From positions 62,001-126,000 of the forward strand of contig WHVA01000094.1 of NCBI GenBank assembly GCA_015179125.1: a DNA stretch of 64,000 nt, written 5' to 3'. A program made the position numbers and the translations under genes. The notes under the pieces are model-generated. The model was not told the origin of the DNA. It made no database searches and worked only from the letters and a program-made list of their open reading frames with translations. Position 1 is the stretch's first letter. Every line of letters begins with the position of its first letter. Source of the stretch: Gautieria morchelliformis. Its lineage: Eukaryota; Basidiomycota; Agaricomycetes; Gomphales; Gomphaceae. Shown here piece after piece: positions 1,752 through 60,300 of the stretch.

Positions 1752-2950
1752 ATGCCGGCGGGGCGTTCGTCGTAAGCTGCTCATTATTTGGAGAAACTTG
1801 CCTTTGAGCTGCTCTACAGCCATCGAATGCTTTCTCGTCGCTCATCATCGGCGGCCTTATCAAAATCAACGGTGTCCAGGTTCCATTGACGCTATCTAAA
1901 ACCATCTCAAAGCCTGGAAAACCACTTCTAGCCAGCGCAGAATGCTTCGCCAATCCCGGCGGTCTACTACCTGTTCGTCCACCCTCCAAACTCCCGCCTC
2001 CAGGTAACCTCTGTCTCCACGTTTCATTGGAACCGGAACGACTCGGCTATGGCAGAGTGGGTTCGGTGTACCCGCTTAGGATTGACGACAACAATCAGTA
2101 CACTCTTCCATCCCTTGTAATAAAAGTCGCTGCTCGGCGCCGTTCTGACGACCTGGCTCGTGAGGCCTGGTTTTACGAAGAGATGGAGGATATTCAGGGA
2201 GTAGCCATCGCACGCTGCTATGGATTCTTTACCGCTGAAATCGAGCAGAATAGCGAGGTATTGGATTGGGCAGAGTCTGATGCGGATTGCGATGAGGAGG
2301 AGGTAGATGTTCGGGGCGAGGCCAGCCCAAGTGAGGATGACGGCGACACGGACGATACATGGAACCTCTATGCATGGACAGATTCTGATGATCTGGTGAT
2401 GGAAGAATTCAGCTGGGAAGCGGTATTTAAGCGCAATGATGAAAGGCGGAAGTTAAGGGAGAAGTTAAGACAAGAACGTCGAGATAAACGTGCCCGAATC
2501 ATCAAACCAACTCGTGCCGATCCGGCCTCAGTGTGCAACCGCAGCGACAAGACCTTTCTTTCAGTCTTGGTCTTAGAAAGACTCGGGGACGTGATGCCCA
2601 TAGGTGTTCCGTTGGATGCATTCAAGTTCGTCTGGCCAGCCCTAACTATGCATGCTTCTGAACATCGTTTGTTATGCAGACCGGATGTTCGTGAAATATA
2701 CAGCGACATGGGTCGATTTGGTATCGAACACATTGACATCCGATGGAGAAATATCTTGGCGGCACCTGCGATAGACCAGAGTATTGTCTGCCCTTATCAC
2801 GGCCACAAGCATCAATGGCGTGTGGTTGACTTCGATCTCTCGAGAAAGTCAAACCATTTACATTCTGGTATCGAAACCGCTGCGAACGGATGGCTTCAGA
2901 CCATACTGGATGGATTGGAAGAAGGATACGTCGTCGAGCCTTGGGACTAG
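1752..2950 (+). CDS. protein-kinase-like gene, copy A (start exon out of frame)
   Basis: The long second exon (1820-2950) is fully open and encodes a divergent protein-kinase fold. It has a glycine-rich loop GYGRVGSVY, a likely ATP-binding lysine in LVIKVAARRR, an acidic insert, a catalytic-loop-like HIDIRWRN (in place of HRDLKxxN) and VVDFDLSRK in place of DFG. It ends in PWD. By comparison with copies B and C the gene starts with a 7-codon exon followed by a 48-nt intron (GTAAGC...CTACAG, 1772-1819). In copy A that exon is 20 nt instead of 21, which puts the ATG at 1752 out of frame with exon 2. No other upstream in-frame ATG was seen, so this copy may be silenced or may use a later start. 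Catalytic activity is uncertain because the DFG glycine is replaced. Confidence 0.6.
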
Positions 2951-3806
2951 ATGCATTGTTTGTCTCCCAACGTGAAATGCATCGGAAAGATTTTATTCAC
3001 ATTTCACGCGAACTCGATCATTTGTGGGCAACTTGGTATATTCATCGTAGATAAGACACGCCTTTAGGATGTCACAAAAGTCGAAATATCCATGTGCCGC
3101 CTGCCAGATGGTGATGTTACAGCATCCCCACGTTTATCCTCGAGCTACTGGCCCTCCGGCTGTACTCATCATGGACTTGTGAGCGGCACCTATCATGATA
3201 CCTACACATCACAGACTGTGATGCTTCCTGTCCACTCATACTTGTCCTTTATTCACAGTCGTAGAAATGTCCCAACTTCTATGTTTGAGATCGGCGGCCA
3301 ACTGTCATCGTACAGTACAGGTCAGTTAGTACTCATGGTCATAGTTCCGGCCTACTTCTTGGCTGGCTAGGTTGGGTCGATGCCCGACATGGATGAGGAC
3401 TAAGGTCTCTGCAGGCTTCAACTTCAGGCCCGCTCCCACGTCCTCTTCGGACATGAGAATATTTTACCTGGACATGTTCCCCTGAATGCGAAGTGGAATT
3501 TCGATACTGAAATGATGCACGGCATGCTAGATAGGGGTTTGCCCTCTTCTTTCGTCACACCACGGTCCGGCCTGGATACTGTGGGGATTCCTGTTAGGGG
3601 CGCATATAACTTTTCAGACTCTGTTTTGGCTCAGCTTGGCTTCTATGGCCTCATCCACATGCTTATCTTGCGATCGTTGGCGAATGAGGAGTATCTATCG
3701 AGTCATGAAGCCTGAGAGGAGAAAGCAATACCTTTATGACTGCTCGCTGCTTCTAACTAACAGTCACAGGCTATAAGAAATGCTCGAATACTTCGAATTG
3801 CCCTTG
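2951..3806 (+). other. downstream tail of the kinase-like unit, copy A
   Basis: This non-coding tail is shared, with small differences, with 37,222-38,066 and in part with 34,143-34,440. Its last bases read, on the minus strand, into the end of the phosphoesterase relic that is better preserved beside copy C (GQF.EFEHFL then stop). Similarity to copy C stops near 3,806, where the repeat-rich block begins. No convincing gene lies inside. Confidence 0.55.
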
Positions 3807-4776
3807 ATGTCAAGTCTCGCAGAGGTTGAAGCCTTGGCCTGGCCACTTTTGAAAATCGAATTGTTGCGGTAGGTATTCGCTGCCTGCTCAAGCTTTTGCG
3901 CTGACCAGAATCCTCTAGAGTTTTGACCGTACGTCGAACCTAGTACCGTCCTCGCGCCCCTTAACGAATCCTTGTTTCAAGCTGCTAGCATTGTCATTCT
4001 AGCTGGTGAGCATGAGGTCGCCAATGCGCATGTCATGCAAATAACACATTGTGGACCAGATTTATGACTACATCCTCACTATCACATTGGAGGTAGAACT
4101 TGTCTTGGGAACACCATAGGTTATCGGGAAGAATCCTCTACCTGTTAACCCGCTATATTGTGTTGTTTGTCGACTCATTGATGTTGGCGTTTTGTGCGCC
4201 GTCTTCATTTGGCCTAATCGCTCCAGACTGACATTATCGAAGTCCACTTCGCGAGCAGGCAATCTGTGTCGGCAAGAACGGTGAGTAGGTTCAAATGGCT
4301 TTTGAACTTTCGTTGTAGTGAGTGCTGAACCTTCGACCTTACCGTGCTCCCTCGTATCAAATTTCAGGCTGTAAGTCTCTGGGTTCGAGTGCGAAATTCA
4401 CTTTACAACAGTCATTGCAAGGTTTATATTCTGGGGTGGATGTCTGGCAGAAAGTAGGAATTGTCAGGCTTTTATTGCTATTTTAGTTGTTCTGATATTC
4501 AGGTCATGGGCTATCTGAAGCCAGAAACGCAAAATTGCCTTCGCACTTCATAGCGTACTGGTGATCGTTGTCGTCCTATTCCCCTACCTGACCAAACTTG
4601 GACTTCCATCTCATGTCTGACCTGGGTTGTTTCTCTCAAAGATTGTGTCCTAGCTCATAGTGTCATAGTCGCTGATGTTACGACACTCCCAATACCAAAC
4701 CTCCAAAGCTCCTTTATTACTAGGAACAACAATATCACCATTTTGTGGGATTATGTTATCATACTGGGTTTCGAGA
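3807..4776. other. junction segment, no gene recognised
   Basis: The sequence no longer matches the duplicated block and has no long open frame or known motif. It lies between the broken end of duplicated copy A and the first LTR of the Gypsy element. Confidence 0.4.
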
Positions 4777-5156: not shown

Positions 5157-7620
5157 ATGTACCCACTCAGTCGAACGACACGATCACATAGTTCGCGCAA
5201 CAAAACCCTGGTGCAGCCTAGTGACACCATGGCTGACGCTAGCTTAGGCTCAGGGCCAAAGGAAGTAGAAGACAGTGAAGTCATAGACCTCACCCCACCT
5301 GTACTTGCACAGACACTATTGACCACGTGTCTCCGAGCCTGGACGAAGTGGACGAACAGGATGGGGACAAGTCATGATCCCCATCCCGCTCACCCCCGCC
5401 TTATGACAAGGGCAAGGGTCAAGCCAAATCGCCTGTCAGCAATGACGAAGGCTCAGCATCGGACCAGACGTCACGACAAGTAAAGAGCTGCAAAGCAGCC
5501 CCCCCAGCTGAAAGACCGTTGTTCCTCCGAAGGAACAGCGTCAAAAAGGACGAGCACCTGATGACAATCAGGACTCGAAATACTTGAGCTCAAGTCAAAA
5601 GAGCTCGAGGACAAACACCGTTGATGAAACAATGGTAGCAGTGTGGCTGAATAACCAGGTGCACGAAGCAACCCAACGCATCGGCCATGCTGTTGCGAGG
5701 AATGAGCAGATAGGCCACAAGCTGGAAAATATGGCAGATGGCATTGCTGGCATAGTCACAATGGCACGTGGACTAGCAAAGTTTCTCGCAGGTCTACGGG
5801 TGTTGCTGACCGATTCCTGCACAGACGTGCGCCAGAGCAATACAGAGATTGCTGGCGTAAGGGTGACACTGCAAGCTCTTGAGGACAAGAACCAGTGCCG
5901 CCACCACCGAGGTTTGCACCCAGCAACAGACAGTGGGCGGGAAAGTGCTGCTGAGGAACAGCGCGAGGCACACGACTGGTGACAAATGCCGCCACAGAAC
6001 ATCCTGTCCGTGCAGGACGTACAGTTCAGAAATGAACCAAGAAACCGTGGGACTGACATGGCCCCAGCGAAGGATGGCAAGACCATCCAGCAGGCTATCC
6101 GCAAGCAGGTGGCCTCAGAGATTGACTGTGAAGACATGGCTGCAAGCCTGGAGCTTGAAGTTGAGCACTGGCAATGGAAGGAGGTGCAAGCCGCCCGTCG
6201 CTATACGCGTGCCCTGGAGCTACACAGACAGCACACCGAAGAGGCGGTGACTCGAGTACAGACCACCCAGCTGCCGAACGAACAGCAGGAGCATGTTGTT
6301 CAGGAGGCCAGACAGGCACGCTCCGCTCTCTTGAGCAGACTATGGGTCCAGAACACAGGATTGACAGGGGATACCTGACATCAATCCCCACGAAGCAGTG
6401 AGTAGGTAGAGGCTGCCACGCCATGCGCAGCTGTGCGGCTGCGTGAAAGGTCCGTTGCCTTGACCTTCAGTCAAGGCATCCCAGACCAGATCAAAGGCCC
6501 GCAGGAGCCATACGATGGCATCACACGAATGATACATGTAGCGCTCACGGATGCCGCAGACACGGACCCAGAAAGTCCATGCTTGCGAAGGCCAGCATAA
6601 AGCTGGCACACCCCGAGCCATATGCTGGAGGTTTGGACCTCCAAGAATTTGAGGGATTTGTAGCTGGCATCTTGAGGTGGCTCAAGATGAACTGCCTATT
6701 AGGGCCAACCACTGTGCAGATGCAGGTGGATTACCTGGGCACTCACCTAACCAGCGAAGCCCAAGAATGGTTTGTTGGAAATGTTGAATGTTTTGATCGT
6801 CAGGTCCGTGAATGGACCTTGGAAATGGCTATGCAAGGGTTGCAGAAGAGATTCATGCACACCCTCACATATCACCATGTGTTGAATAAGTTCGATGCGG
6901 TTGTGCAAGGCACGGAAACCGTTCAGGAAATGCTGAATGAGCTCACGAAATACTCGGCGCAGATGATACAGCCCACCTGATGAGTACACCCTCCAAAGAC
7001 GGTTCATGTCAGCATTGCGCGATACATTGCATGATGAAGTCCTAAAAAAGGGCTACAACACCGAGTCCAGCTTGATCGAGCAGCTCTTTGAAGCTGCCCA
7101 TATGATCAAGGAAGCATCCTGGTACAATCAAGGGATGCACTGGGCAGAAAATGCAGCCACATTGGCCATCACATCATGGCTCGCCACAAGAAAGCCGACT
7201 ACACAGTTGGGCTTTAACAAGCCCACTGCATTCCAGGCAAACAGTGCCTTCCGATGACCTATGGCAACAAAGTTGCCGCAATCAGGTCATCCGCCTGAGG
7301 TGTCGGGGAGCTCGGCGAAGCCGAGCTACCCGCAAAAACCATCTGGATGCCCCCCAGACTGGCTGCAGAATGTGCACAGAAGCGCAAGCTGCTTTGAATG
7401 TGGCCAGACAGGTCACATCAAGGCGAATTGCCCACGCCTGAAGCTGAAAGTACGGACAGCGGCTGTACGGCAAGACGATGATGGGGACCTGGAGGATCCC
7501 ATTGACACCTCTCTTCAACAGATTGAAGAGGGGGAGGGTGACCCTCAGGAAACTGAGGATCAGGATAGGAACGGCGAGCTGACAGAGGCTTGGGAGCTGG
7601 AGCCATCCCAATACTATGGC
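5157..7620 (+). pseudogene. Gypsy G1 gag region (fossil)
   Basis: The region encodes pieces of a Gypsy capsid-type Gag. An N-terminal part starts MYPLSRTTRSHSSR, a helical central part includes an EAQEWFVGN-like capsid motif, and a nucleocapsid zinc knuckle reads CFECGQTGHIKANC near 7,390-7,430 (CX2CX4HX4C). The N-terminal and central parts match the gag copy at 52,795-54,432. The region is broken and is interrupted downstream by the 4-kb insert. Confidence 0.75.
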
Positions 7621-17013: not shown

Positions 17014-20000
17014 TTAATATATTCCGATTTGCTCGTTGAGGATCTTCACTCTGGGACTAGGAAGTCCTTTAGTGAGGATATCTGCCAACATTTGTTCGGT
17101 TGGCAAATAAACGAGCTTGGCTTGTTGATTTTTGATTATATCTCGAAGGAAATATAATCTGATGTCGAAATGTTTGGTTCTCGTGTGTTGTTGAGTGCCA
17201 TAGGTGATGGCAATGGCTGATTGATTGTCTGAATAAACTTGGATGGGTCTGTTCAGTGGTTGGAATATTTCAGAAATAAAATGGCGCATCCAGAGAGCCT
17301 CTTTGCCCGTATGGGTCAGGGCGACGAATTCAGCTTCAGTTGATGAGAGGGCTACTATCGACTGTTTCTGGCAACTCCATGAAACAGTGCCTCCATCAAT
17401 CTGAAATAAGTATGCCGAATACGAACGCCTATGACTCTGTGAACCCCAATCCGCATCTGAATACCCCATCAAGCCGTCTCGATTTCTTCCAAGTGTGAGC
17501 TTGTAATGCTTTGTGCCTTTCAAATATTTCAAGACACGTTTGACTGCATTCCAATGTGTGCCACCTGGATTTTCAAGGAATTGCGAGAGCAATGACACCG
17601 CAAATGCAATGTCAGGTCGAGTGGCTACAGCTGCCCACATCAGTGATCCTATAGCTTGCCTGTACGGAAACTTCGACATGGCTTTCTTGCCTCTCTCTGT
17701 AGAAGGGCATTGGTCTTTAGATAATTTTACGGCTGGATCAAGAGGCGTAGCATAAGTCTTTGCATCTTCGAGATTGAATTTTTTGATTATCTTCTCGATG
17801 TATGCAGGTTGTGAAATTGCAATGGTTTTCTTCTGCCAGTCTCTTTCGATTTTAAGATTCAATAGCCAATGAATCTCGCCTAGATCTTTCATACTGAAGA
17901 CCTGAGCAAGGTCTCGTTTGACTTCGTCCAGGACTGACTGATTCTCAGCTGTGATGGTAAGGTCGTCTACAGCTGTTGCAATGATCACATGCCCTTTTCC
18001 GCCACGTCTATAAAATACAGCCCCGTCTGTGGCTGACGTAGTGAATCCTAACTTGTGGAATTCACCACTTAGACGTTTGTACCATTCTCTTCCAGATTGT
18101 TTGAGGCCGTAGAGTGCTTTCTTCAAAAGTAGCACTTCGCCTTTGTCTCCTGACTCATATCCATACGGCTGCTTCATGTAAATAGGTTCAAGCAACGTAG
18201 CATTGAGGTATGCATAGTCCACGTCCATTTGATGAATAGGCCAGTCATTCCTAGCAGCAATGGCGCATATGATCCGTAGGGAGGATAACCGAGCAACAGG
18301 TGAGTATGTCTCATCATAGTCGATTCCAAACTTCTGCGTGAAGCCTTGGGCGACCATTCTCGATTTAGGTACTATTGGTTTCCCTTCTGGATTACGCTTC
18401 CAAAGGTAGACCCATTTGTTACCGACAATGTTGGCTCCAGGAGGTGGTTTGGTTCGTTCCCACACTCCCTTGTCGATTAGGGCCTCATACTCTTTGTCCA
18501 TTGATTTCTTCCACATAGGATTATTCAGAGCTTCGTCTGCATTGCTAGGTTCAATTTGACTCAAATCCGGCGCCTTGTTATTGTTTTGACCGTTGGTTAG
18601 AAACGCACTGATGGCACACTCATAGCTACTGATACCATCAATCTTGGAGGATAATTCTTGGTCGAATAAAACTTCTTTATGGTCCTCAACGTCCTCGTAA
18701 GCTAGCGTAGTCATATGTGCGCCAGTTTGTCTCTGAGTTTGAGATCTTGTCACGGGACCTGATGGGGCCGGCTGCACTTGTTGTTGACGGATCCTTTCGC
18801 TTCTCCTTATCGGTTCAGCTTCTCTAGGTCTGTCATCAACTCCCTGAATAGGTTGCAGCTTTTCAAGATATTCCTCCGGTGCACTTTCATCAATTTCTTC
18901 GATCTTTGCCTCTTCACTGACTAAGCGACCGGGCACAGGCACTGATGCCGGAATGGCCTTCTTCTCTGCTTTAGACGTAGGTAGCTTGGATTCCTCAATA
19001 GAAATGATTGGGACCTTTCCCTTCTTCATCTCTGAATCAAACACAACGTTCCGCTCGACAGAAACTTTGTGCGAGTCAGGCCAATAAACATAATGACCAT
19101 GGCTCTGCGCAGAAATTCCTATCCACCGAGCTCTCTTGGCACGAGCTGCCAATTTATCTCCCTGAGTGACTTTAACGTAGATTTCAGTTCCCCACGCGTG
19201 AATGTCTTTGAGATTCGGTTTTTCATGGTGAATCATCTCGTAGGGCGTTTTATCTGGTAGAGCTCTTGTATGCGTCCTGTTCCTAAGATAATTGGCATGC
19301 TGTATCGCATAGCCCCATAATATCTTAGGAAGGCCTGATTCTAACAGCATGGCACGAGTTCTCTCAGTGAGAGTTCGGTTCAGACGTTCCGCAACACCAT
19401 TGGACTCTGGTGTGTCGTGTACCGTCAACTGATGCTTCGTGCCTTGTTTGGCTAGATGCTGTTCAAATTCAGAGCTCATATACTCGCCCCCTCGATCAGA
19501 AACAAGTGCCTTGATGTGCACATTTCTTTGTCGAAGCATTAAAGCCTCGTAGAGCTTGTACTTTGAAAATGCTTCTGATTTGTTCGCCATGAGATAGATG
19601 ACCGATTCTCTTGAGTAGTCATCGATAAAGGAGACATAATATGACTTCTTATCGATTGTGAGGTGTCTTGCAGGTCCCCAGACATCAGAATAAATTCTGT
19701 CACCGAATTTTGATGTTCGGTCTCTGGGTTCTCGAGGAAGAGGTTTGCGTGTAATCTTGGCCTGAATACACGCATCACAGACAATTCTATCGCCTGTGGA
19801 GCTCAGTTCGATGCCCAATATCATGCCATGATTTAATAGATGTTGTAGGGACTTCTGTGAGATGTGCCCCATTTTCTGATGAATTTCCATGGCAGACAGA
19901 CACATATGGGCTTGAGCACTTGGTGACTGGAGGTCTAGTCGATATAAACCATTGACCTTCGGTGCTTGCATCAATACCTTTCCAGCAGCGTTAGATATCG

Positions 20001-21051
20001 TGCATTTCTGGCCACCGAGTCGAATGTCGTAGCCAGCATCATCGCACCGACCGATCGAGACGAGGGTAGCAGCAATTTTTGGAGCATAATATGTATCTTG
20101 CAACGTGACTTCTACTGTTTTATCTCCAACCTTATTGGATAATACAAGCAGTCCTGAACCGAAGGCATCAAAGGTGCCTTTGTTGGCTGCTCGGATAGTC
20201 CTCGGCTGTGAGAATTGACAGTAGTTCCTCAATAAATTTTTGTGAGGAGTCATATGCGATGTCGTTCCGGTGTCGAGTATAACTATAACTCCTGAGGATG
20301 TGCTCAGATTGGAATTAGAGCACTCGTCAAAATTGGTGAAGGCTAGATGCCCATCACCACTTTCCTCAGAAGAGGACTCTTCTTCGGCAACATTCGCTTT
20401 TGCTTTACCCTTCTTCTTCTTCTTGCCTTTGGCTTTTTTCTTCTGACGTGGTCCTTGACCTTCTTTACCACCTCCTTTTGCCCAGCAATTTTCGATGGAA
20501 TGTCCAGGCTTTTTGCAGTTGGTGCATACATGCGCCTTCTGCCCCTTTTGGTCCTTCTTAGTAGATGAACCAATAAACACCTGCTCTTCTTGCGGGAGTG
20601 TTTTCTTCCTGTCATACTGAGCCTTTAGTACCCTAATAATATTGTCAGGAACTAATGGCATCCCGCATTCTTCGAGCGAGGTGGTGAGGGCGTTCATGAC
20701 TGCCTCATAGGATGGTGGAAGTGACGCAAGGATTATGTCCATGAATTCTTCTTCAGAAACTCTAGCTCCCATCTCATTAAGACGAGCATATAGGTCTTGG
20801 GCCTTGTCCAAGTGGTCTCTCAAGTCTCCATCCTCAGGACATCTCATACTGCGGAGTTGTCTCTGCAGGCTGGTGAGGACCATCTTGGGCTTCTTGGTCA
20901 TTTCATTGACCAGTGCATCCCAAGTCTCTTTTGCTGTCTTCTGCTTCTGTAGCATCAGGGCTAATGACTCTGACACTGAGACGATGATTTGGGTCTTGGC
21001 TTGTCCTTCTCTAGCAAGGTATCTCTCCAGCTTCTCCTCAGCCTTATCCAT
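17014..21051 (-). CDS. Copia-1 Gag-Pol polyprotein
   Basis: One frame of 1,345 codons on the minus strand. In order it contains a Gag helical region, a zinc knuckle CTNCKKPGHSIENC (about residues 175-190) followed by a lysine-rich stretch, a protease with DTGTTSHMTP (about 258) and a GAG-pre-integrase HHCC region ending CDACIQAK. The integrase core follows (SDVWGP..., SDRGGEY..., then the E in PESNGVAERLN), then the reverse transcriptase (KSRMVAQGF, DVDYAYLNA, LLKKALYGLKQS, AVDDLTI) and RNase H (YSDADWG, STEAEFVAL, SDNQSAI). This order, with integrase before RT, defines Ty1/Copia. It encodes the proteins that copy and reinsert the element. Confidence 0.92.
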   Translation of the reverse strand: MDKAEEKLERYLAREGQAKTQIIVSVSESLALMLQKQKTAKETWDALVNEMTKKPKMVLTSLQRQLRSMRCPEDGDLRDHLDKAQDLYARLNEMGARVSEEEFMDIILASLPPSYEAVMNALTTSLEECGMPLVPDNIIRVLKAQYDRKKTLPQEEQVFIGSSTKKDQKGQKAHVCTNCKKPGHSIENCWAKGGGKEGQGPRQKKKAKGKKKKKGKAKANVAEEESSSEESGDGHLAFTNFDECSNSNLSTSSGVIVILDTGTTSHMTPHKNLLRNYCQFSQPRTIRAANKGTFDAFGSGLLVLSNKVGDKTVEVTLQDTYYAPKIAATLVSIGRCDDAGYDIRLGGQKCTISNAAGKVLMQAPKVNGLYRLDLQSPSAQAHMCLSAMEIHQKMGHISQKSLQHLLNHGMILGIELSSTGDRIVCDACIQAKITRKPLPREPRDRTSKFGDRIYSDVWGPARHLTIDKKSYYVSFIDDYSRESVIYLMANKSEAFSKYKLYEALMLRQRNVHIKALVSDRGGEYMSSEFEQHLAKQGTKHQLTVHDTPESNGVAERLNRTLTERTRAMLLESGLPKILWGYAIQHANYLRNRTHTRALPDKTPYEMIHHEKPNLKDIHAWGTEIYVKVTQGDKLAARAKRARWIGISAQSHGHYVYWPDSHKVSVERNVVFDSEMKKGKVPIISIEESKLPTSKAEKKAIPASVPVPGRLVSEEAKIEEIDESAPEEYLEKLQPIQGVDDRPREAEPIRRSERIRQQQVQPAPSGPVTRSQTQRQTGAHMTTLAYEDVEDHKEVLFDQELSSKIDGISSYECAISAFLTNGQNNNKAPDLSQIEPSNADEALNNPMWKKSMDKEYEALIDKGVWERTKPPPGANIVGNKWVYLWKRNPEGKPIVPKSRMVAQGFTQKFGIDYDETYSPVARLSSLRIICAIAARNDWPIHQMDVDYAYLNATLLEPIYMKQPYGYESGDKGEVLLLKKALYGLKQSGREWYKRLSGEFHKLGFTTSATDGAVFYRRGGKGHVIIATAVDDLTITAENQSVLDEVKRDLAQVFSMKDLGEIHWLLNLKIERDWQKKTIAISQPAYIEKIIKKFNLEDAKTYATPLDPAVKLSKDQCPSTERGKKAMSKFPYRQAIGSLMWAAVATRPDIAFAVSLLSQFLENPGGTHWNAVKRVLKYLKGTKHYKLTLGRNRDGLMGYSDADWGSQSHRRSYSAYLFQIDGGTVSWSCQKQSIVALSSTEAEFVALTHTGKEALWMRHFISEIFQPLNRPIQVYSDNQSAIAITYGTQQHTRTKHFDIRLYFLRDIIKNQQAKLVYLPTEQMLADILTKGLPSPRVKILNEQIGIY

Positions 21052-27354: not shown

Positions 27355-27654
27355 GATCAGTGAGGGTACAAAGAGGGCCAAAAAGCGAAGAAGACGTACA
27401 GGAGCAGTGGCGCAGAGACGAGTGACAGGCAGAAAGAGATCAAACCCGATATTTATACGCGTCAAGAGAGGCTAGAGGGAGGGCCTAGCAAGAGATCAAA
27501 GCTCAGCGGCCCAGCGAAGACTTAGGGCACGTCTCACCACAGAGCAGGCATCACATGGGACCAATCATCGACCGATAATAAGCAGGGTAACGGAGGACAT
27601 GATCAAGGAGGATACAAACAGGTCAACAAGTAAAGAAGACGTACAGGAGCTATG
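27340..27654. repeat. partial tandem duplication that received the transposon
   Basis: About 27,340-27,560 recurs as 27,590-27,654 continued at 32,437-32,600. Both contain GAAGACGTACAGGAGC and GGCGCAGAGAC and later AGATCAAAGCTCAG.GGCCCA. The transposon entered the second copy, so the first copy resembles the empty site. Confidence 0.7.
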
Positions 27655-27842
27655 TAGAGTGCGCGGATTCGTCGCGCTTCAATTTTAGGTGCATAATCTC
27701 GGGCATCACCCGAGGTCACATGACTCGTCAGATTTCGCCACTTGCAACTTACTTATACAAGCATCCCGCTCACTGATTGTCAGTGATAACGAGACAGCGT
27801 AAGTAGTCTGTATACTACCTTCAGGGCCGTCTTCGGTAAAGA
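27655..27842 (+). repeat. left terminal inverted repeat
   Basis: Matches the reverse complement of the right end with only a few differences. It contains an internal palindrome (ATCTCGGGCATCACCCGAGGT) and CACTGATTGTCAGTGATAAC. It lies about 75 bp before the transposase ATG and probably holds its promoter. Confidence 0.88.
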
Positions 27843-27917
27843 AAAGTACTATCGTCTCGACAATCTTGTTATTGGGCGCTAATCCTCGAATTGATCGACC
27901 AGACGTACACGCTCGCT

Positions 27918-29520
27918 ATGCCAAACGTCGAAGGCACAAACCAGTACGGTCCAAAAAACTGTATGTTTTATTTTTGAGTGCGGCGAAGATAACTCACATA
28001 TTTTCTTATCTAGATCCGGAGGATGGCATTCTTACAGCCTCATTTAAACAGTACACCCGCGAGAGGTTGACAGCGCCGCAGCAACTGGAGCGCCTCAAAG
28101 AGGAGTTCAATATAGTTATAGGGTATGTCAACAACTTTTATTTTCCTGTGAAGATTTCAGAACAAGTGCTTTGTAGAGAAACGACCTTATACAAACTTCG
28201 GCGCCGGCTCAATATCCCCACTATGCGGAACAATGCGTTGGCACCTGAAGAGAAGGTGCAAGCTGTTCTCAACATGAAGGAGCATGATGTGGCAGGTCTA
28301 TGGGGAGTAGAACAGACCCGAGGGAGACTTGCAAATGAGGACACGTACTTATCACGGTACGCAAAAGTTGTTTTTGATTATGCTTCGTAGTCTCTAATTC
28401 TGTCAAACAGAGATGAATGTCGCCAGATTCTTCATGATCACTTTGACCCTGAGTTCGAGAAACGTTTTCCGGGAGCTCAAAAAGAGATAACTCGCGCTCC
28501 ACTGCGAACTTTCGGCCCATGGCACAAACTCAATCATGACGGACATGAGAAACTCGGTAGTCAGGCACTTGAAATGGGAGGGGTAGGTTTACCTATCTAT
28601 GGAAGTAAGGATCAATTTTCCAACTATATACTTGGCCTCGTCACAATGCCGAATGTTCGCCTTGAACAAGCAATCACGCACTACAAACTGGATTTGATTG
28701 AGGTGCATGACTGTAAGTAATGTTTAGTTCCTTGGATAGTTATAAACTACAGCAATTGCCATGTAAGACCGCATTGGACTCCAGGATATCACGGACAAGG
28801 GAAGTGAAACGGGGGAAATGTGTCGTATTCAAGAGAGCTTGAGGTGAGTACATAATATATCTATTTCAATGAGTCTATATGGTCATGCATACAAATAGGC
28901 TTCAAGCGGCACCTGAGTATCTACTTGATAAATGGCCACCAGCCATACAGTTGCCCAGCACTCGCAACACACCAATCGAAGGATTCTGGCGCTGGAAACG
29001 GAATGGTGAAGGCCACACTCTTCGCCACGTCCTTTTAGCTGGACGTGACAGTGGATGCTTCAATCCTAATGATGAATTGCAAATGTGAGACAATTAAAAC
29101 ATATCCCGAGCCGTACTTATTTGTGAATTTAGTGAAGTTTTTTATTGGCTCTGGCCGCCCCTTGTTCAAGAGCGGCTTGATCTATATCGTGACTACTGGA
29201 ACTCACATAGGATTCGCAAGCAAAAAGGTAAAAACGGTGCCTCTGGTGTTACACCACGTCAGGCATTCCATATTCCTACGAGTGCACGACCTGATGCACA
29301 TGACTGCTCTGTGCGTGTGGATCCTGGCATGGTGACACGATTCAGGGAGGCACTTGGAGGTGAGGAGGGACGTGAGAGAGCCTTTCATTTTATTTCTTGT
29401 GAGTTTCAGGCAGAGGCAGACCATGCATGGATCAATCTGGGGTCCCCTGAAATCACACTAGCTACAGCATGGGACATGTTTGCAGCAGTGCTAGCACTGA
29501 TCCATCGTCTGCGTATGTGA
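27918..29520 (+). CDS. integrase-core DDE transposase
   Basis: Seven exons fit a single frame: 27,918-27,960, 28,014-28,122, 28,177-28,356, 28,411-28,702, 28,785-28,843, 28,899-29,084 and 29,133-29,520. They encode about 418 aa. The N-terminus has a helix-turn-helix-like TTLYKLRRRLNIPTMR. The catalytic core shows WHKLNHDGHEKL (first Asp), DITDKGSETGEM (second Asp) and NTPIEGFWRWKRN (Glu), followed by the RLDLYRDYWNSHR region. This set is typical of the integrase-core transposases abundant in basidiomycetes. It would cut and rejoin the element ends. An alternative last exon after 29,605 is possible. The start was chosen because MPNVEGTNQYGPKN resembles the family N-terminus and leads in frame into exon 2. 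Confidence 0.8.
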
Positions 29521-29610
29521 GTCACACGGACAAATAAATAAGGTTTTTGAAGCAGTTGGAGTAAGGCATATTGTGTAACAAGTAAAGCTATTTCTGCTTG
29601 CAGACAAAGC

Positions 29611-32097
29611 CTACGCAAGCTTGATGATTGGGGGCCTTTGAAGGCCTTCATCACCTTGAAGGTATTGATCCTCCACAAATTTACCCAGTTCAAGAGGCAT
29701 ATCCAGCTGCGCCACCTCTTCAGCCTGGTTATCTTCAAGGACCCGTGTAAATGTTTCATTCATGTCTTCCACCGGGAGAAGTTGCATCGAGTGGCAGACT
29801 GCTGTGCAGCAATGGCTGTCTATAAAAGCTTGTATACCTTCAGGGCCATGATCACCACTCCCCGATTTGCTGCATAGTTGCCAGTCTGAGTTAGCATTGG
29901 TAAGTACGGTAATGAGTTACTTACCCAGTTACGCTGTGGGACTGAGGATCAAATAATGTTAATGTGGCCACCTGATTCACAACATTGATATTGCCTGTTT
30001 GTGAGGTTAGTCAGTTTTCTTGCAGAGGAGACCATAGCAAAGCTGACCTTGCAGATCTACAAACAAGAATTTGCACCCCGTACGTTCAAGTACCCAATGT
30101 GTAAAGGCACCTACCCCTGCTGCCCGTCTCCCAGATGCCACTCGGTTCGTCAGTGTACCTGAAAACTTAATTGTAGCAGTTGAAGACCGTAAGGGCTCAA
30201 CAAGGTAGGCACGATTGATGTCTTCAGCTGTCTCTTGAACAACTTGGATAATGAAAGCCTCTGTGACGGTAAAAGCTGACAATGATCATGAGCTACTGAA
30301 ATATCAGTTTACTGATATTAATTACCTTCTACTTCGATGCCTTGTCCCCGTACTTCCTCAAAAAACTCCTCAGTGAATGATGCAAGCCTTTGGACACAAG
30401 CCAGCTCAAACAGCAACTCATTATATACAGGGTATTCATGTATGGCATCTTTGGATCCCCTGAACGTTTTGGCAGCGTATGTTTGTTGTCCTATGATAAG
30501 CTGAAACACTGTAAGAAATGAAACAGATTACACTGACCACTACATACCTTGAATACATCTTTAGAGCGCCCTTGATCCGCAGCCGCTAAGATGATTGGAC
30601 TATCGTTCAGAAGGCCACTGAGAATTTCTTCGTGCTCAGTAATATTAGGCCGCTTGGAGGCTGGATCGACTGAGCATGTGGTCTTCTTGAATTTAATTGT
30701 GTGTGCGGCACCTCCTTCTTTCATAGGCAGGATCGCTTTCAAGTCATGATCAATAAAATCACTGCGGTGGATGCTTGACCCTGTCACATGAGGTCAGGAA
30801 AATAAAACAGTAATACATGCCAGCACTCACCCCTAGTGCGCTTGGTAGCTGGAGCAGACACAAAGCGAGTCTTGTAACCACCACCACGTGCCCCACCAGG
30901 GCCTGACTTTTGACCACGCTGAGGCATACTCACTTGCAAGCCGAAGTCTTCATTGCCCCCTTCTCCAGTACGAGCCAGGTACTGATTGCTTTGTACTTAG
31001 TCATAACAAATCATACAAAACAGCACCAACCTTCTGGACATTGATGAATACTTCAAGGCATAGATATGACCCTTTTGGAAGCTTTGCAGTGCCCCGATGA
31101 TCGGTGAGGTAGAAGGCGCGATCGGCGCCCCTTGAATAAAATTCATAGAGCTTTTGGATGCTCAATGTTTCTGTGTCCTTTTTCAAAGTCTTGTTATCCC
31201 GGAATTGAATCTCACAATCATCACTGATGTTCATGAGTACCTAGCCAGGTGATGCAACATTTGGCAGCAAGAATGAACTCACGGGTGAAGTTCATACAGG
31301 TGACCAAGCCGCTTGGTCCATTGCGGCGTTATTTGATACACCAAGGACTCGAGAACCTCTTAAAAACACAATATAAGTATATGAGGATAGACATCATTGA
31401 ACATCTCACCGGGCATAGTTTGATCACCATTAAACGTCAGCGATCCTGATCCTAACTCACGACTGACCGCTTTGGGATTGGTACTTAGCCGTACTTCATA
31501 TGTTACCGTCCACGTGGCCTTCAATGTGTTAGTGCGTATGTTTTCGAGCTCGGACTGAGGTGTGTTCGGGCCTGGAGCGTGGGTTGAAGCCATATTACCC
31601 TGTATGCTCTGTCTATCTTGCCCAACCCGGCTCTGGATCAATGACAGTCGGCGTTCTTTTGCTATGTCTTTCTCAGGATTACTGAGATTGTCTTCTTTCC
31701 AAGCTGTAAGGCAGATCGATAAAAGCAGTCGAACTCCGTAAGAACTTTATAGCACTTACCTTTAGTCTCACAAGTTCCACATGGGTCGGTAATATAGGTG
31801 CCAAAGACGCCACATTGGGCACACTGCTTCATAGCCTCCAGAAATCATTAGTGTAATGCAGGTGAAGGGCTAGTTTTAACAACTCACCAACACACGCTCT
31901 CGATCGATGTCCGACAGTGTCGTCTCTGAAAGCTTTTTGCACTTTCTACAGAGATCAGTGGTAGCACGTGGGAAAGTACGTTGGCAGCCGTCGAGGTCAT
32001 TGTCTGCACCACCGCATGGAACTGCATGAGCTTTAGAGATGTCCTCAACCATTGGAAAACACCGGACTGTGTGATGTGGGCATTCCTTGCAGCGCAT
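29611..32097 (-). CDS. alpha-kinase (MHCK/EF2K type) carried by the transposon
   Basis: A spliced minus-strand gene from the ATG at 32,097 to the stop at 29,611-29,613, with about ten exons. The N-terminus is cysteine-rich (MRCKECPHHTVRC, LCRKCKKLSE, then KQCAQCGVFGTYI and DPCGTCETK), suggesting zinc binding. A long linker follows. The C-terminal third shows alpha-kinase features: FQLIIGQQTYAAKTF with the ATP-site lysine, EDINRAYLVEPL, GCKFLFVDLQG with the catalytic Asp, LTLFDPQSHS, and GPEGIQAFIDSHCCTAVC matching the zinc-binding end of the fold. It should phosphorylate Ser/Thr in helical substrates. It lies inside the transposon, tail to tail with the transposase, so it is a passenger gene. 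Exact exon limits are partly inferred. Confidence 0.75.
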
Positions 32098-32242
32098 TTT
32101 AAACCATACAGAACTGTCAGGGTTGCCTCAGCAGTGACTAGCCAGCTAGAAAGCTTCAGAAGCGGGAAGAAGGTACTTCGGTGTTATAATTGCCGCGATT
32201 GCGTTTGGGGTAGGCCGCAAGCAGTTGAGACCAGTATTTGTC

Positions 32243-32436
32243 TTCACCGAAGACGGCCCTGAAGGTGGTATACAGGACTACTAGCTACTTACATTGTCTC
32301 GTTATCACTGACAATCAGTGAGCGGGATGCTTGTATAAGTAAGTTGCAAGTGGCGAAATCTGACGAGTCATGTGACCTCGGGTGATGCCCGAGATTATGC
32401 GCCTAAAATTGAAGCGCGACGAATCCGCGCACTCTA
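32243..32436 (-). repeat. right terminal inverted repeat
   Basis: Reverse complement of the left end, ending CCGCGCACTCTA. It lies about 145 bp upstream of the alpha-kinase ATG and probably supplies its promoter. Confidence 0.88.
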
Positions 32437-32870
32437 AGCTATGGCGCAGAGACCAGAGAGCGGTAGAAAGACATAGAACCGGATATTTATACACGCCAAG
32501 GGAGAGGTTAGAGGAGCGCCTAGAGAGAGATCAAAGCTCAGAGGCCCAGCGAAGACTTATGTAGGCCATGTCTCACCAAAGAGGCATCACATGCGTTAAT
32601 TCAACGACCGATGCATGATTAGCACGGAGAATAGTCGGCTAAAGTGTCATAATTCCCACGATTTTCGACTTCCCAGAGCCCTTGACGAGCAAGGGGATCA
32701 GCGATTTGGGCTCCGATTTTCCGGAGCTGATTTTGGGGTGTTCGCTCGATTAACTGCACTGGAATCTACTAAGTACTATAGGGATAATCAGTCCAATTCA
32801 GCAACCTAGAAGCGGAGAACCCCAACGTGCGACTTGCGATACTTAATCTCTGCAGGTCTCTCAGTATACC
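32437..32870. other. region upstream of kinase-like copy B
   Basis: The first 160 bases complete the small duplication that received the transposon. From about 32,720 the sequence matches the upstream region of kinase-like copy A (CAGCAACCTAGAA, then GTGCGACTTGCGAT). No gene was seen. Confidence 0.5.
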
Positions 32871-36014: not shown

Positions 36015-37221
36015 ATGCAGGCGGGGCCGTTCATCGTAAGCTGCTCATTATTTGGAGAAACTTGCTTTTGAGCTGCTTCTCTACAGCCATCGAATGCTTT
36101 CTCGTCGCTCATCGTTGGTGGCCTTATCAAAATCAACGATGTCCAGGTTCCATTGACGCTCTCTAAAACCATCTCAAAGCCGGGAAAACCACTTCTGTCC
36201 ACGGTAGAAGCCTTCGCCAATCCCAGCGGTCTACCACCTGTTCGACCACCCTCCAAACTCCCGCCTCCAGGTAACCTCAGTCTCCATGTTTCCTTAGAAT
36301 TGGAACGACTCGGCTATGGCAGAGTGGGTTCGGTGTACCCGCTTAGGATTGACGACACCGATCAGTACGCTCTTCCATCCCTTGTAATGAAAGTCGCTGC
36401 TCGGCGCCGTTCTGACGACCTGGCTCGTGAGGCCTGGTTTTACGAAGAGATGGAGGATATTCAGGGAGTAGCCATCGCACGCTGCTATGGGTTCTTTACT
36501 GCTGAAATCGAGCAGAATGGCGAGGTATTGGATTGGGCAGAGTCTGATGCGGATTACCACGAGGAAGTAGACGTTGGGGACGAGGACATAGACGTTGGGG
36601 ACGAGGACAGCGAAAGTGAGGATGACGGCGACTCGAACGATACATGGAACCGCTATGCATGGAGAGATTCTGATAATCTGGTGATGGAAGAATTCAGCTG
36701 GGAAGTGGTAGTTCAGCGCAATGATGAAAGGGAGAAGTTAAGGGAAGAACGTCGAGATAAACGTGCCCGAATCCTCAAAGCAGCCCGTGCCGATCCGGCC
36801 TCAGTGCGCAACTGCAGCGACAAGACCTTTCTTTCAGTTTTGGTTTTAGAAAGACTCGGGGACGTGATGCCCATAGGCGTTCCGTTGGAAGCACTCAAGT
36901 TCGTTCTGGCCAGCTCTAACTATGCATGCTTCTGAACATCCTTTGTTACGCAGGCCGGATCTTCATGAAATATACAGCGACATGGGTCGATTCGGTATCG
37001 AACATATCGACATCCGATGGAGAAATATCCTGGCGGCACCTGCGACAGACCAGAGCATTGTTTGCCCTTATCACGGACACAGGCATCAATGGCGTGTGGT
37101 TGACTTCGATCGCTCGAGAAAGTCAAACCATTTACATTCTCGTATCGAAACCTCTTCGTGCTTATGGCTTCGCATCATACTAGATGGATTAGAAGAAGGA
37201 TGCGTCATCGAGCCTTGGTAG
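36015..37221 (+). pseudogene. protein-kinase-like gene, copy C (one frameshift)
   Basis: Best-preserved start of the family. Exon 1 is 36,015-36,035 (MQAGPFI), the 51-nt intron is 36,036-36,086 (GTAAGC...CTACAG), and exon 2 opens with PSNAFSSLIVGGLIKIN. The frame holds through GYGRVGSVY, LVMKVAARRRS and an acidic insert (DVGDEDI repeated) to about 36,900. There one extra T (GTTCGTTCTGG against GTTCGTCTGG in copy A) shifts the frame. The remainder, with IEHIDIRWRNILAAP and VVDFDRSRK, continues in the next frame to a TAG at 37,219. Only about 135 bp separate its ATG from the nuclease-like gene start, and its native upstream sequence is missing beyond about 16 bp. Confidence 0.8.
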
Positions 37222-54785: not shown

Positions 54786-56180
54786 GCCCAAAGTGGGCAC
54801 CGGCGTTCAAAATACACATACCGCACAAGGAGGAGCTGGCTATGGCAGAGATGAGAGGTGACACAGCAGAGATGAGAGGTGACACAGCAGAGATGAGAGG
54901 TGACACAGCAGAGATGAGAGGTGACACAGCACAGATCCAGGTATACACTGATGGATCATGCATCGATGGAGGGGTCGGAGCGGCAGCGGTCCTTTACAAG
55001 GGAGGGGTAGAAGTTCAGGCAGTCAGGCTCCACCTAGGCACCGAGGAGGAGCATACGGTCTTCGAGGCGGAGTTGCTAGGAGCCACCATGGGGGCGAAGC
55101 TATTGTATACGGAGCGCAGCGATAGATACACCATAGGACTGGACAGCCAAGCGGCGATGCTAACAACGAGGAAAGACAAGCAGATCTCGGCACAGTACTT
55201 GGTCAGCGCGCTGCACCGACAGATAGAGGGGTTAGTGCAGAGACGTCAGGGGATGGAAGTAATCATGAGATGGACACCAGGACACAAGGGCATCAAGGGG
55301 AATGAGAGAGCGGATGAAGAAGTGAAGGCGGCGAAAGGCGACAGCAGCGAGGAGAGGCATGTGCCGATAGGGTGCAGGGGCATCTTGCCTTGGAGCAAAG
55401 CCACAGCCCTACAAAGACATCAGAAGGAGCTTAAAAGGAGAGCCAAAGAAATGTTTGTGAAATCGCCGAGGGCTGGAATCGCACACAGGATCGACAAGAC
55501 AATGCCGTCCATAGCATTCACAAGGCTAACAGCGGGCATGGCACGAAGAAAAGCAACACTCCTAATTCAGCTAAGGACAGGACACATCGCACTCAACAAA
55601 CACCTGTTTCGCATAGGAAAAGTAGACTCACCGACATGCGCAGCATGCAGAGGTGCAGATGAGATGGTGCACCACTTCCTTTTCTGATGCCCGGCCTACA
55701 AAACCCAGTGCAGCGAACTCAAGAGAGCACTCCGGAGAGGGGTGACAGCAGCCAACACGCTTCTGACGAAACTGAAAGTGATGAAAGGGCTCTTCAGGTA
55801 CATCCAGAGCACAGGGAGGTTTGAACAAACACAAGGGAACTGGAGCACGAGAGAGGAAGAAGACTGGCAGGGACGGAGCTAAGAGGAAGGCAAACAACCA
55901 GAAGATGGGAGAACAGACAAGAGAGGTGGGGACCAGACCAAGCGGGAAAGGGAGGGAAGAGGAGAGTAAGATAGGGAAGTAGAGGAATGGAACAGGACAC
56001 AACACTCACTCCTCGCCACCGGAGGCACAGACATGCTCAGGGCACAGCCTGAAGAGCACAAGTGGAGACTGAGAAGGAAGGGCTGGATAGAAATCATGTA
56101 GACCGGGGCTGTGTAGATGCATCTTACATAGGGCCGTGCCACAAAAGACGATAAATTGATTTTTTTTTTAAAAAAAAAGA
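54786..56180 (+). mobile_element. Tad-like LINE 3' end with RNase H
   Basis: Coding begins in frame right at the LTR boundary (PKWAPAFKIHIPHKEE) and runs to 55,687. The RNase H domain has YTDGSCIDGGVGAAAVLY, EAELLGA, LDSQAAML and TPGHKGIKGNERAD, with the D-E-D and H...D residues. A C-terminal zinc-binding region follows (CAACRGADEMVHHFLF). A TGA stop at 55,685-55,687 falls just before CPAYKTQC, where family members continue; the original end would be about 65 codons later. The element ends at a T9A10-like run near 56,160-56,180. The upstream endonuclease and RT are absent, cut off at the Gypsy LTR. Confidence 0.8.
54846..54929 (+). repeat. four tandem 21-bp units in the LINE
   Basis: The unit GCAGAGATGAGAGGTGACACA is repeated four times without change and in frame, coding AEMRGDT each time, just before the RNase H domain. 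Confidence 0.95.
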
Positions 56181-58540: not shown

Positions 58541-58565
58541 GTGTCTCTGGAAATGATGCCACCAG

Positions 58566-58775
58566 ATGGTGCACGTGCACGTGAACCATAGGTGCAGATG
58601 GTGTATGGTTCATGTGCACCATACGTGGCACTGGGGTACAGTCCACGTGAACCATATGTGAAGACGGCAGACGGTGCACCATACATGCCGAGGGCTGTGT
58701 ATGGTTCATGTGCACCATACGTGCATGCGGCAGATGGTGAACTGTATGGCAGAGGGCCGTGTACAGTTCATGGGC
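58566..58775. repeat. degenerate minisatellite of palindromic words
   Basis: Units of about 25-40 bp around ATGGTTCATGTGCACCATACGT recur four or five times on both strands. Many words are palindromic (GTGCAC, CACGTG, GGTGCACGTGCAC). Confidence 0.7.
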
Positions 58776-60300
58776 ACACTGCGGGCTCCCACACACTGGG
58801 GTGTGTTCCAGATGCGGCAGCAATGTGGCCACACCCAGGCCTGTGAGAGTGGGAGATGATAGCACATTCAGTGCTCCTGCTCCCAGGTGACCCAACCGCC
58901 AACACGTGCATGTGGGGCACATTGCGGCTGTCAGGAGTCATGGGAGCAGTGGGAGTCCAGACGTGCAGAGTCGATCCTTGGGCGCATGGGTGCAGGTGCA
59001 GGTGCAAGCGAGGGGAGTAGGTTAGTATGAAGGATTCAGGGCATGGGTGCAGGGCTTGGGACGGTGGTGGTCTAGCCCCTGCAGTAATAGGCAGACCTCC
59101 AGGAGAGTTGGGGCTAGAGGAAGAAATGTGACCCCCTGTGTCCAAGAGGGACAGATGCCTGTCATCTGTCAAAAACCACATGTCAGTACCCCATCTATGG
59201 AGGAAAGGAGGAGAGGAAAAGAAGGTGATGTGAAGAAGAGGTGACAAATGAGGAGAAGGGGAGGGGGAGGAGGAAGAGAAAATGAACAAGTCAAAACAAG
59301 AACAAGGCTATTTACCTGCTGCACCCACCATCATCACAACTACCCATTGTTAGGAAACCAGACTGTACAGTACCCATTGACCCACTCACCCTTCTCTGTC
59401 CCTCTAGTCACTTACCACTCCTTCCCCTCCACGAGCTTCCACCATCCAGCGAGTCAAACGAATTCACCGAGGCGCGTACGCGCGCACCGAGTCGAGCCGA
59501 GTCGAGTTGAGCCGAGTCGAGGAGCCACGCGATCTCATGGGCTCACAACACCACACACACATCGCGGATCAACCAGACGATCGAGTCCTATGTTTCTCCC
59601 CTTTTCCCCTTCTCCTGTCTCGACCCTGTCCCATTTCGTGATCACACTATGTTGCTCCACAAAATGTACATGTAGGTAGTTCCATTTTCCTGATCTACCC
59701 CACAGACGCTCCACACCCATCTCCAACCCTCGGCCCTCCTCCTTCTGACCTTCCTCTCGCCCATGCCCCCTCAATTTCTCCATTAGTTACCTTGGATACG
59801 TTTGTATAAAAGACTGAACGATGCTCTCAATTAAAGCCACCAATTCTACTGGTCACTATTCCTGCGCTCGAGTTCTAAGCGCATCGAGTCCCCGCCGAAA
59901 TATTCCGGGCCACTCCAGACCCCGATTCCTTAAAGCTACATTTAGTAGCACATCCTATAGTTACCTAGTATTCTTTAGACCCATGACCCTGCTCAACGCT
60001 GCCACCACACGCCTTGTCTGTGCATGAGTGAGTGGATGTTCTCGATAGCCCCTATGCTGACCTATCATTGTTTGTGGTATTTCCTTTTTTCTTCCTTTGA
60101 CACTGGTGGGGAGTAGGTGTACACCTGTAGGTAGGTACTGCATGAGTCAAATGTGGGCAAGTGCCAAATAGCGCTGCAGTGTGACATAATTCTCTCTCTC
60201 ATTATCCAGGGGACAGGAGGTTAAAACTTCCATGTAGTGAAGTCAACATGCAATAAAGTCTCACTATATATGTAAAGGTCATTTGATATGACAGTTTTTA
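58776..60300. other. no gene recognised; short CGAGTCGAGC repeat
   Basis: Purine-rich (59,190-59,290) and pyrimidine-rich (59,390-59,460, 59,690-59,780) tracts. CGAGTCGAG(C/T) words recur at about 59,488-59,522. Short frames show nothing recognisable. Confidence 0.35.

What the first reader, a model, noticed from the sequence alone, without database searches (positions are those of the whole stretch)
27655..32436. DNA transposon that carries its own alpha-kinase gene
Nearly identical 187-bp inverted repeats and a perfect 7-bp target duplication enclose two spliced genes, tail to tail: an integrase-core transposase (D, D, E motifs, seven exons in one frame) and a minus-strand alpha-kinase with a cysteine-rich N-terminus. 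Each gene starts just inside one inverted repeat, so the repeats likely serve as matched promoters. A Ser/Thr kinase as a constant passenger of a cut-and-paste element would be unusual. It could regulate the transposase or affect the host, and it could explain spread of alpha-kinase genes in this genome. Family assignments come from motifs; the functional link is inference.
Basis: partly seen in the sequence, partly recalled or inferred. Interest (0 to 1): 0.85.

Follow-up and report, generated by a model that had tools for sequence, protein, structure and literature searches.

The report
Two-gene jumping element with alpha-kinase
A false-truffle fungus carries a cut-and-paste jumping gene that brings its own protein kinase along; the pairing recurs across several element families, and a related arrangement in other fungi was mentioned in print in 2025, but what the kinase does is not known.

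Summary
Window 27655-32436 is a DNA transposon, almost certainly of Gautieria morchelliformis: 196/204-nt inverted repeats, a perfect 7-bp target duplication, and an uninterrupted tandem unit beside it as empty-site control. It holds a 7-exon integrase-fold transposase and, tail to tail, an 11-exon alpha-kinase; both frames are open.

It is not a one-off capture. In this genome 36 of 46 alpha-kinase matches lie within 6 kb of a related transposase (0.45 expected), 29 of the 36 tail to tail; but 55 of 93 pooled transposase loci have no kinase match that near. Between subfamilies A and B synonymous sites are saturated while both proteins are conserved, so selection kept both.

The idea is not wholly new: Kojima 2025 (PMC12730594, passages) states that TET-bearing IS3EU transposons of rusts and a truffle have an alpha-kinase opposite the transposase. 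Ours lacks TET and gives 7-bp, not the usual 6-bp, duplications. The kinase has a Cys-rich N-terminus and, predicted on a Galerina homologue, a ubiquitin-like domain. Matched promoters are not supported as a general feature. The kinase's function is inference: probably serving the element.

The parts
27648..27654 (.). target site duplication, left (AGCTATG)
   Evidence: identical to 32437-32443; site interrupted in tandem unit 2, intact in unit 1
27655..27850 (+). left terminal inverted repeat, 196 nt, begins TAGAGTGCGCGG
27675..27686 (+). 12-mer CGCTTCAATTTT at positions 21-32 from the end, same position in subfamily B; candidate transposase-binding site
   Evidence: function is inference
27918..29520 (+). 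integrase-fold DDE transposase, 427 aa, exons 27918-27960, 28014-28122, 28177-28356, 28411-28712, 28768-28843, 28899-29084, 29133-29520; D154, D221, E264
   Evidence: fold on the annotated copy P0006
29521..29610 (.). 90-nt gap between the two stop codons; no room for a third gene
29611..32097 (-). alpha-kinase, 654 aa, exons 32097-31888, 31835-31760, 31703-31410, 31358-31283, 31223-31031, 30981-30831, 30780-30548, 30500-30326, 30275-30048, 29994-29925, 29869-29611
31760..32097 (-). Cys-rich N-terminal part of the kinase (exons 1-2; paired CxxC motifs, putative zinc binding)
   Evidence: invariant Cys in A, B, Galerina, Serendipita; similar pattern by eye in family C
31031..31703 (-). middle of the kinase, roughly residues 157-285, corresponding to the predicted ubiquitin-like beta-grasp of the Galerina homologue (exons 3-5)
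   Evidence: fold only, transferred by alignment
29611..30780 (-). alpha-kinase catalytic region (YAAK, VDLQG, DPQSH, HCCTAVC), exons 7-11
32233..32436 (-). right terminal inverted repeat, 204 nt
32405..32416 (-). same 12-mer in the right repeat
   Evidence: read from the sequence
32437..32443 (.). target site duplication, right (AGCTATG)

Best explanation
This is a young, apparently complete copy of an IS3EU-like, two-gene cut-and-paste transposon. SHOWN from sequence: structure, TSD, open frames, the transposase-kinase pair in two subfamilies and in more distant families of the same genome, and conservation of both proteins while synonymous sites saturated. INFERRED FROM KNOWN FAMILIES: the transposase, an integrase-fold DDE enzyme, binds the subterminal TIR sequence, excises the element and joins it to staggered cuts 7 bp apart. 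INFERRED: the alpha-kinase is an element-serving accessory protein, not cargo for the host; its Cys-rich/ubiquitin-like front half gives it a target, and it phosphorylates either host silencing or chromatin machinery (my first choice, about 0.45) or the transposase or its cofactors (about 0.35), so that elements that lose it leave fewer copies.
Against: No expression, kinase activity or transposition data. 55 of 93 pooled transposase loci have no PF02816 match within 6 kb; four of these have kinase sequence by tblastn (C160, C142, C1049 and a distant fragment at C477), C90 runs off its contig and the C898 partner is about 21 kb away, but most (e.g. C278, C337, C482, C802, C892) were not read and may be kinase-less. 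A more distant rva_4 clade showed no kinase at the one locus read (L040). 7 of 36 pairs are not tail to tail. The three other both-ended A copies (C227, C342, C160) show no matching 7-bp flanks. Copies of a transposon are not independent, so the probability overstates. dN/dS of 0.3-0.8 among recent copies mixes selection and decay and says little.
Confidence: 0.85

Rival explanations
1. One-off capture: a host alpha-kinase gene was picked up by this element recently and is passive cargo.
For: 55 of 93 pooled transposase loci have no PF02816 match within 6 kb.
Against: Same pair, orientation and similar exon layout in subfamily B at 58%/48% identity and the pair in families C and D; 36 of 46 kinases paired.
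Confidence: 0.03
2. The kinase is an intrinsic regulator or cofactor of transposition (phosphorylates the transposase or a host DNA-repair/cell-cycle factor to time excision), without a role in silencing.
For: Recurrent pairing with the transposase and mostly the same inward-facing layout; both genes are damaged together in old copies.
Against: No substrate known; some pairs have other orientations; some transposase lineages may do without it.
Confidence: 0.35
3. Alpha-kinases are host genes in regions where these transposons insert, or domesticated TE kinases, and the pairs are coincidence.
For: 8 of 46 kinase matches have neither a transposase within 6 kb nor a subfamily-B TIR about 1.9 kb away; these may be host or domesticated genes.
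Against: In the both-ended A and B copies the kinase sits inside the TIRs with the transposase, and 36 of 46 pair against 0.45 expected.
Confidence: 0.04

Closest known systems
TET-positive IS3EU transposons of Pucciniales and Tuber (Kojima 2025, PMC12730594)
   Same: DDE transposase and alpha-kinase in opposite orientations between TIRs; families B and C here end TACGG..CCGTA, fitting the reported TAYGG..CCRTA.
   Different: No TET/JBP gene in the 90-nt gap; 7-bp (A, B) or 5-bp (C) TSDs instead of 6; subfamily A ends TAGAG..CTCTA; host is a Gomphales fungus. A term search finds the word alpha-kinase in one place of the main text (2 occurrences); seen: abstract, passages, section 34 and the first part of section 24.
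IS3EU/GingerRoot superfamily (Kojima 2023, PMC10045372)
   Same: TA..TA termini, integrase-type DDE transposase without an HHCC N-terminal motif (passages).
   Different: TSD usually 6 bp there; 'kinase' does not occur in its main text (0 hits).
KDZ and other fungal transposons with a TET/JBP passenger (PMC12730594)
   Same: DNA transposons that carry an enzyme proposed to help against host control.
   Different: Different transposases and a different passenger enzyme.
Alpha-kinases eEF2K, Dictyostelium MHCK-A, ALPK1 (and, weakly, TRPM7/ChaK)
   Same: Motifs D(L/I)QG, DPQ and H-x-C-x3-C.
   Different: Carried by a transposon; N-terminal Cys pairs plus a predicted ubiquitin-like domain.

Membership tests
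IS3EU superfamily | TA..TA termini | tested here: met
   A TAGAG..CTCTA, B and C TACGG..CCGTA
IS3EU superfamily | TSD usually 6 bp | tested here: not met
   7 bp in the window copy (3 older both-ended A copies show none) and B (3 perfect, one 6/7, of 4 both-ended copies read); 5 bp in C (2 of 2 both-ended). The source says 'usually', so this lowers rather than excludes membership; I call the element IS3EU-like
IS3EU superfamily | integrase-type DDE transposase without HHCC N-terminal zinc motif | tested here: met
IS3EU superfamily | transposase groups with Repbase IS3EU sequences in a tree | not testable with these tools
   Repbase sequences are not held
TET-positive IS3EU of fungi | alpha-kinase opposite the transposase | tested here: met
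   29 of 36 pairs convergent
TET-positive IS3EU of fungi | TET/JBP gene between the two | tested here: not met
   90 nt between stop codons in the window copy; a genome scan with PF12851 found nothing, but its controls rang nowhere either, so absence genome-wide is not shown
Alpha-kinase family PF02816 | Pfam match above the curated cut-off | tested here: met
   75.2 bits against 21.3
Alpha-kinase family PF02816 | catalytic and zinc-binding motifs | tested here: met
   VDLQG, DPQSH, SHCCTAVC aligned with eEF2K; Lys in YAAK aligned among homologues; which residues are catalytic is recalled
Alpha-kinase family PF02816 | protein kinase activity | not testable with these tools
   needs the protein
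Ginger1 / retroviral integrase group | HHCC zinc domain before the catalytic core | tested here: not met
   no Cys in the first 112 residues

The most novel reading that the evidence does not exclude
Fungal IS3EU-like transposons carry an ancestral, selected alpha-kinase of a distinct architecture (paired Cys motifs, ubiquitin-like domain, alpha-kinase) that acts as an anti-silencing effector: it phosphorylates host DNA-methylation, chromatin or RNAi components so that the element escapes CpG methylation, and rust relatives added a TET demethylase to the same strategy. Most alpha-kinase 'expansions' in these fungi would then be transposon genes.
Probability: 0.3. Interest if true: 0.85.

Novelty: new variant of a known kind. 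Interest (0 to 1): 0.55.

Why it matters
If the pairing is general, alpha-kinase family sizes in fungi are largely a count of transposons. One genome paper calls the alpha-kinase family highly expanded in rusts (PMC4469406, passage), and another lists an alpha-kinase protein among genes under diversifying selection proposed as effector candidates (PMC4150398, passages); such readings would need checking against transposon ends, which I could not do. A kinase kept by a cut-and-paste element for as long as its transposase would also be a testable case of a mobile element encoding its own signalling enzyme.

Tried and rejected
One-off capture and coincidence with host genes: rejected. TIRs as matched promoters: not general. 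TET/JBP third gene: none in the window copy; the 2.5-kb kinase-to-transposase gap in the C222 copy (L038) gave no Pfam match in the 4 open frames scanned. Protein searches for the kinase outside this genome found little: Galerina marginata (37%, 94% coverage), Serendipita vermifera (N-terminal part) and Mycena polygramma; only the roughly 8,000 candidates sharing most words were scored, so this is no evidence of rarity, and I could not read the DNA around them. AlphaFold of the Galerina kinase had mean pLDDT 43; only about residues 147-275 were confident, with a dip near 240-255, so nothing is claimed for the kinase lobe from that model beyond weak ChaK hits (E 3.7e-3). A profile search of the transposase against PDB sequences found nothing. 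I did not resolve the divergent and same-strand pairs (C194, C559, C654, C270; C147, C415, C453), though pieces of L042, L043 and L039 were read.
Full report
IDENTITY OF THE GENOME. The window lies in an unnamed 122-Mb genome. Eight contig lengths (484,833; 520,168; 368,974; 245,061; 243,649; 231,244; 140,524; 19,563) equal those of contigs that encode annotated Gautieria morchelliformis proteins. Gautieria belongs to the Gomphales. The organism is an inference, but a strong one.

THE ELEMENT. The inverted repeats begin at 27655 and 32436, align over 196/204 nt with 7 mismatches and two gaps, and are flanked by the 7-bp duplication AGCTATG. The insertion splits the second unit of a tandem repeat of about 245 bp whose first unit is intact, so the boundaries are confirmed by an empty site next door. 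The plus-strand gene has seven exons and encodes 427 aa; the minus-strand gene has eleven exons and encodes 654 aa. All 16 predicted introns are GT-AG and 47-59 nt long. The stop codons are 90 nt apart. The first kinase model had wrong splice choices, mended after comparison with an annotated copy.

RECURRENCE IN THE GENOME. Subfamily A: nine places with coding sequence, counting the window and leaving out a 69-nt piece (C1048, C227, C342, C160, C1049, C142, C477, C776, C159); seven hold pieces of both genes and two, C776 and C159, kinase only in the stretch read. Subfamily B (transposase 58-59%, kinase 47-48% identical): eight gene-bearing copies with both TIRs, all eight with both genes; two TIR pairs of 583 and 668 bp are gene-less miniature elements; C90 and C276 have a TIR and transposase but no kinase match; other single TIR matches were not examined. 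Families C and D also pair the genes. Overall 36 of 46 PF02816 matches lie within 6 kb of one of 93 pooled transposase loci, 0.45 expected; 29 convergent, 4 divergent, 3 same strand. Two of the ten unpaired kinases lie about 1.9 kb inside a subfamily-B TIR, the same distance as in the paired B copies (C898, C200). Conversely 38 of the 93 transposase loci have a PF02816 match within 6 kb and 55 do not; four of the 55 have kinase sequence by tblastn, and most of the rest were not read and may include kinase-less lineages. A second, distant rva_4 clade is abundant and showed no kinase at the one locus read (L040). The genome search scores only its best candidates, so all totals are lower bounds, and copies are not independent observations.

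SELECTION AND DECAY. Between A and B synonymous differences are saturated (pS 0.78-0.80) while nonsynonymous differences are 0.26-0.27 (transposase) and 0.36 (kinase): both genes were under purifying selection over that time. Of 13 other copies read by spliced alignment against the window proteins none reads as full length and undisrupted in both genes (the B readings depend on an alignment to a 48-58% identical query), so the window copy is the only intact one among those read. Five decayed A copies compared with the window show C>T at CpG at 0.07-0.36 per site against 0.003-0.05 elsewhere, 7 to 21 times more, the mark of CpG methylation.

TARGET DUPLICATIONS AND ENDS. A: 7 bp in the window copy; three older both-ended copies (C227, C342, C160) show no matching flanks. 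B: 7 bp perfect in three and 6/7 in one of four both-ended copies read. C: 5 bp in 2 of 2 both-ended copies. A and B share CGCTTCAATTTT at positions 21-32 from the end. The matched-promoter idea fails as a general rule: TIRs shrink to 74-90 nt in B and 25-32 nt in C.

LITERATURE. Kojima 2025, PMC12730594 (abstract, passages, section 34, first part of section 24), states that all TET-positive IS3EU families carry a TET/JBP gene between transposase and alpha-kinase, which are in opposite orientations; the rust ones have 6-bp duplications and TAYGG..CCRTA ends; one family is from a truffle. Kojima 2023, PMC10045372 (passages), gives TA..TA ends and usually 6-bp duplications for IS3EU. The listings of ten full-text searches (one search showed 20 of 354) named no other paper on a transposon alpha-kinase; the library lacks most subscription papers and Repbase, so earlier notes may exist. 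A smut genome paper calls the alpha-kinase family highly expanded in rusts (PMC4469406 passage); PMC5295586 has PF02816 in a table of protein domains that I saw only in part; PMC4150398 lists one alpha-kinase among genes under diversifying selection (passages). Whether those are transposon genes I could not test.

HOW IT PROBABLY WORKS. The transposase acts on the TIRs and joins the element at cuts 7 bp apart (from the fold, TSD and DDE residues). The kinase, kept alongside the transposase, most likely serves the element. Two targets are plausible: host silencing, which has left its mark on this family (CpG decay) and which rust relatives may oppose with a TET enzyme; or the transposition machinery itself. 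I lean slightly to the first; nothing here decides it.

VERDICT. A real two-gene transposon lineage, old enough for A-B saturation at synonymous sites. The pairing was already stated in print for TET-bearing relatives, so this is a new variant: TET-less, 7-bp duplications, long TIRs, with evidence of selection and of a dominating share of the alpha-kinase matches in this genome.

Noticed in passing
window 17014-21051 (-): A 1,345-aa open frame that reads like a copia-type retrotransposon polyprotein (named from its motifs by eye; no profile run).
   Followed up: no
window 1886-2950 (+) and 36153-36935 (+): Two paralogous open frames, 34 kb apart, with a kinase-like look by eye; no Pfam match at E 0.001.
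   Followed up: partly
window 54842-55687 (+): RNase H domain open frame beginning with a 21-bp tandem repeat; looks like a retroelement piece.
   Followed up: partly
window 27376-32700: Tandem repeat of about 245 bp into which the element inserted.
   Followed up: yes
L042 (C194) 3700-4260 and 6600-7100: Arrays of GGTGCACCTGCACCGTAC-like inverted motifs on both sides of an alpha-kinase whose neighbouring transposase points away; a different element architecture. Similar motifs by eye at window 58563-58777.
   Followed up: partly
L037 (C332): Two family-C elements in inverted orientation, 99-100% identical over about 4 kb in three blocks, with about 1 kb between them: recent duplication, or an assembly effect.
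   Followed up: no
C201:129517-130184 and C1015:262045-262627: Short gene-less pairs of subfamily-B TIRs, MITE-like.
   Followed up: no
decayed subfamily-A copies C227, C342, C160, C142, C159: C>T change concentrated at CpG, 7 to 21 times the rate elsewhere, in a subphylum for which PMC12730594 (section 24, first part) says hypermutation is not detected.
   Followed up: partly
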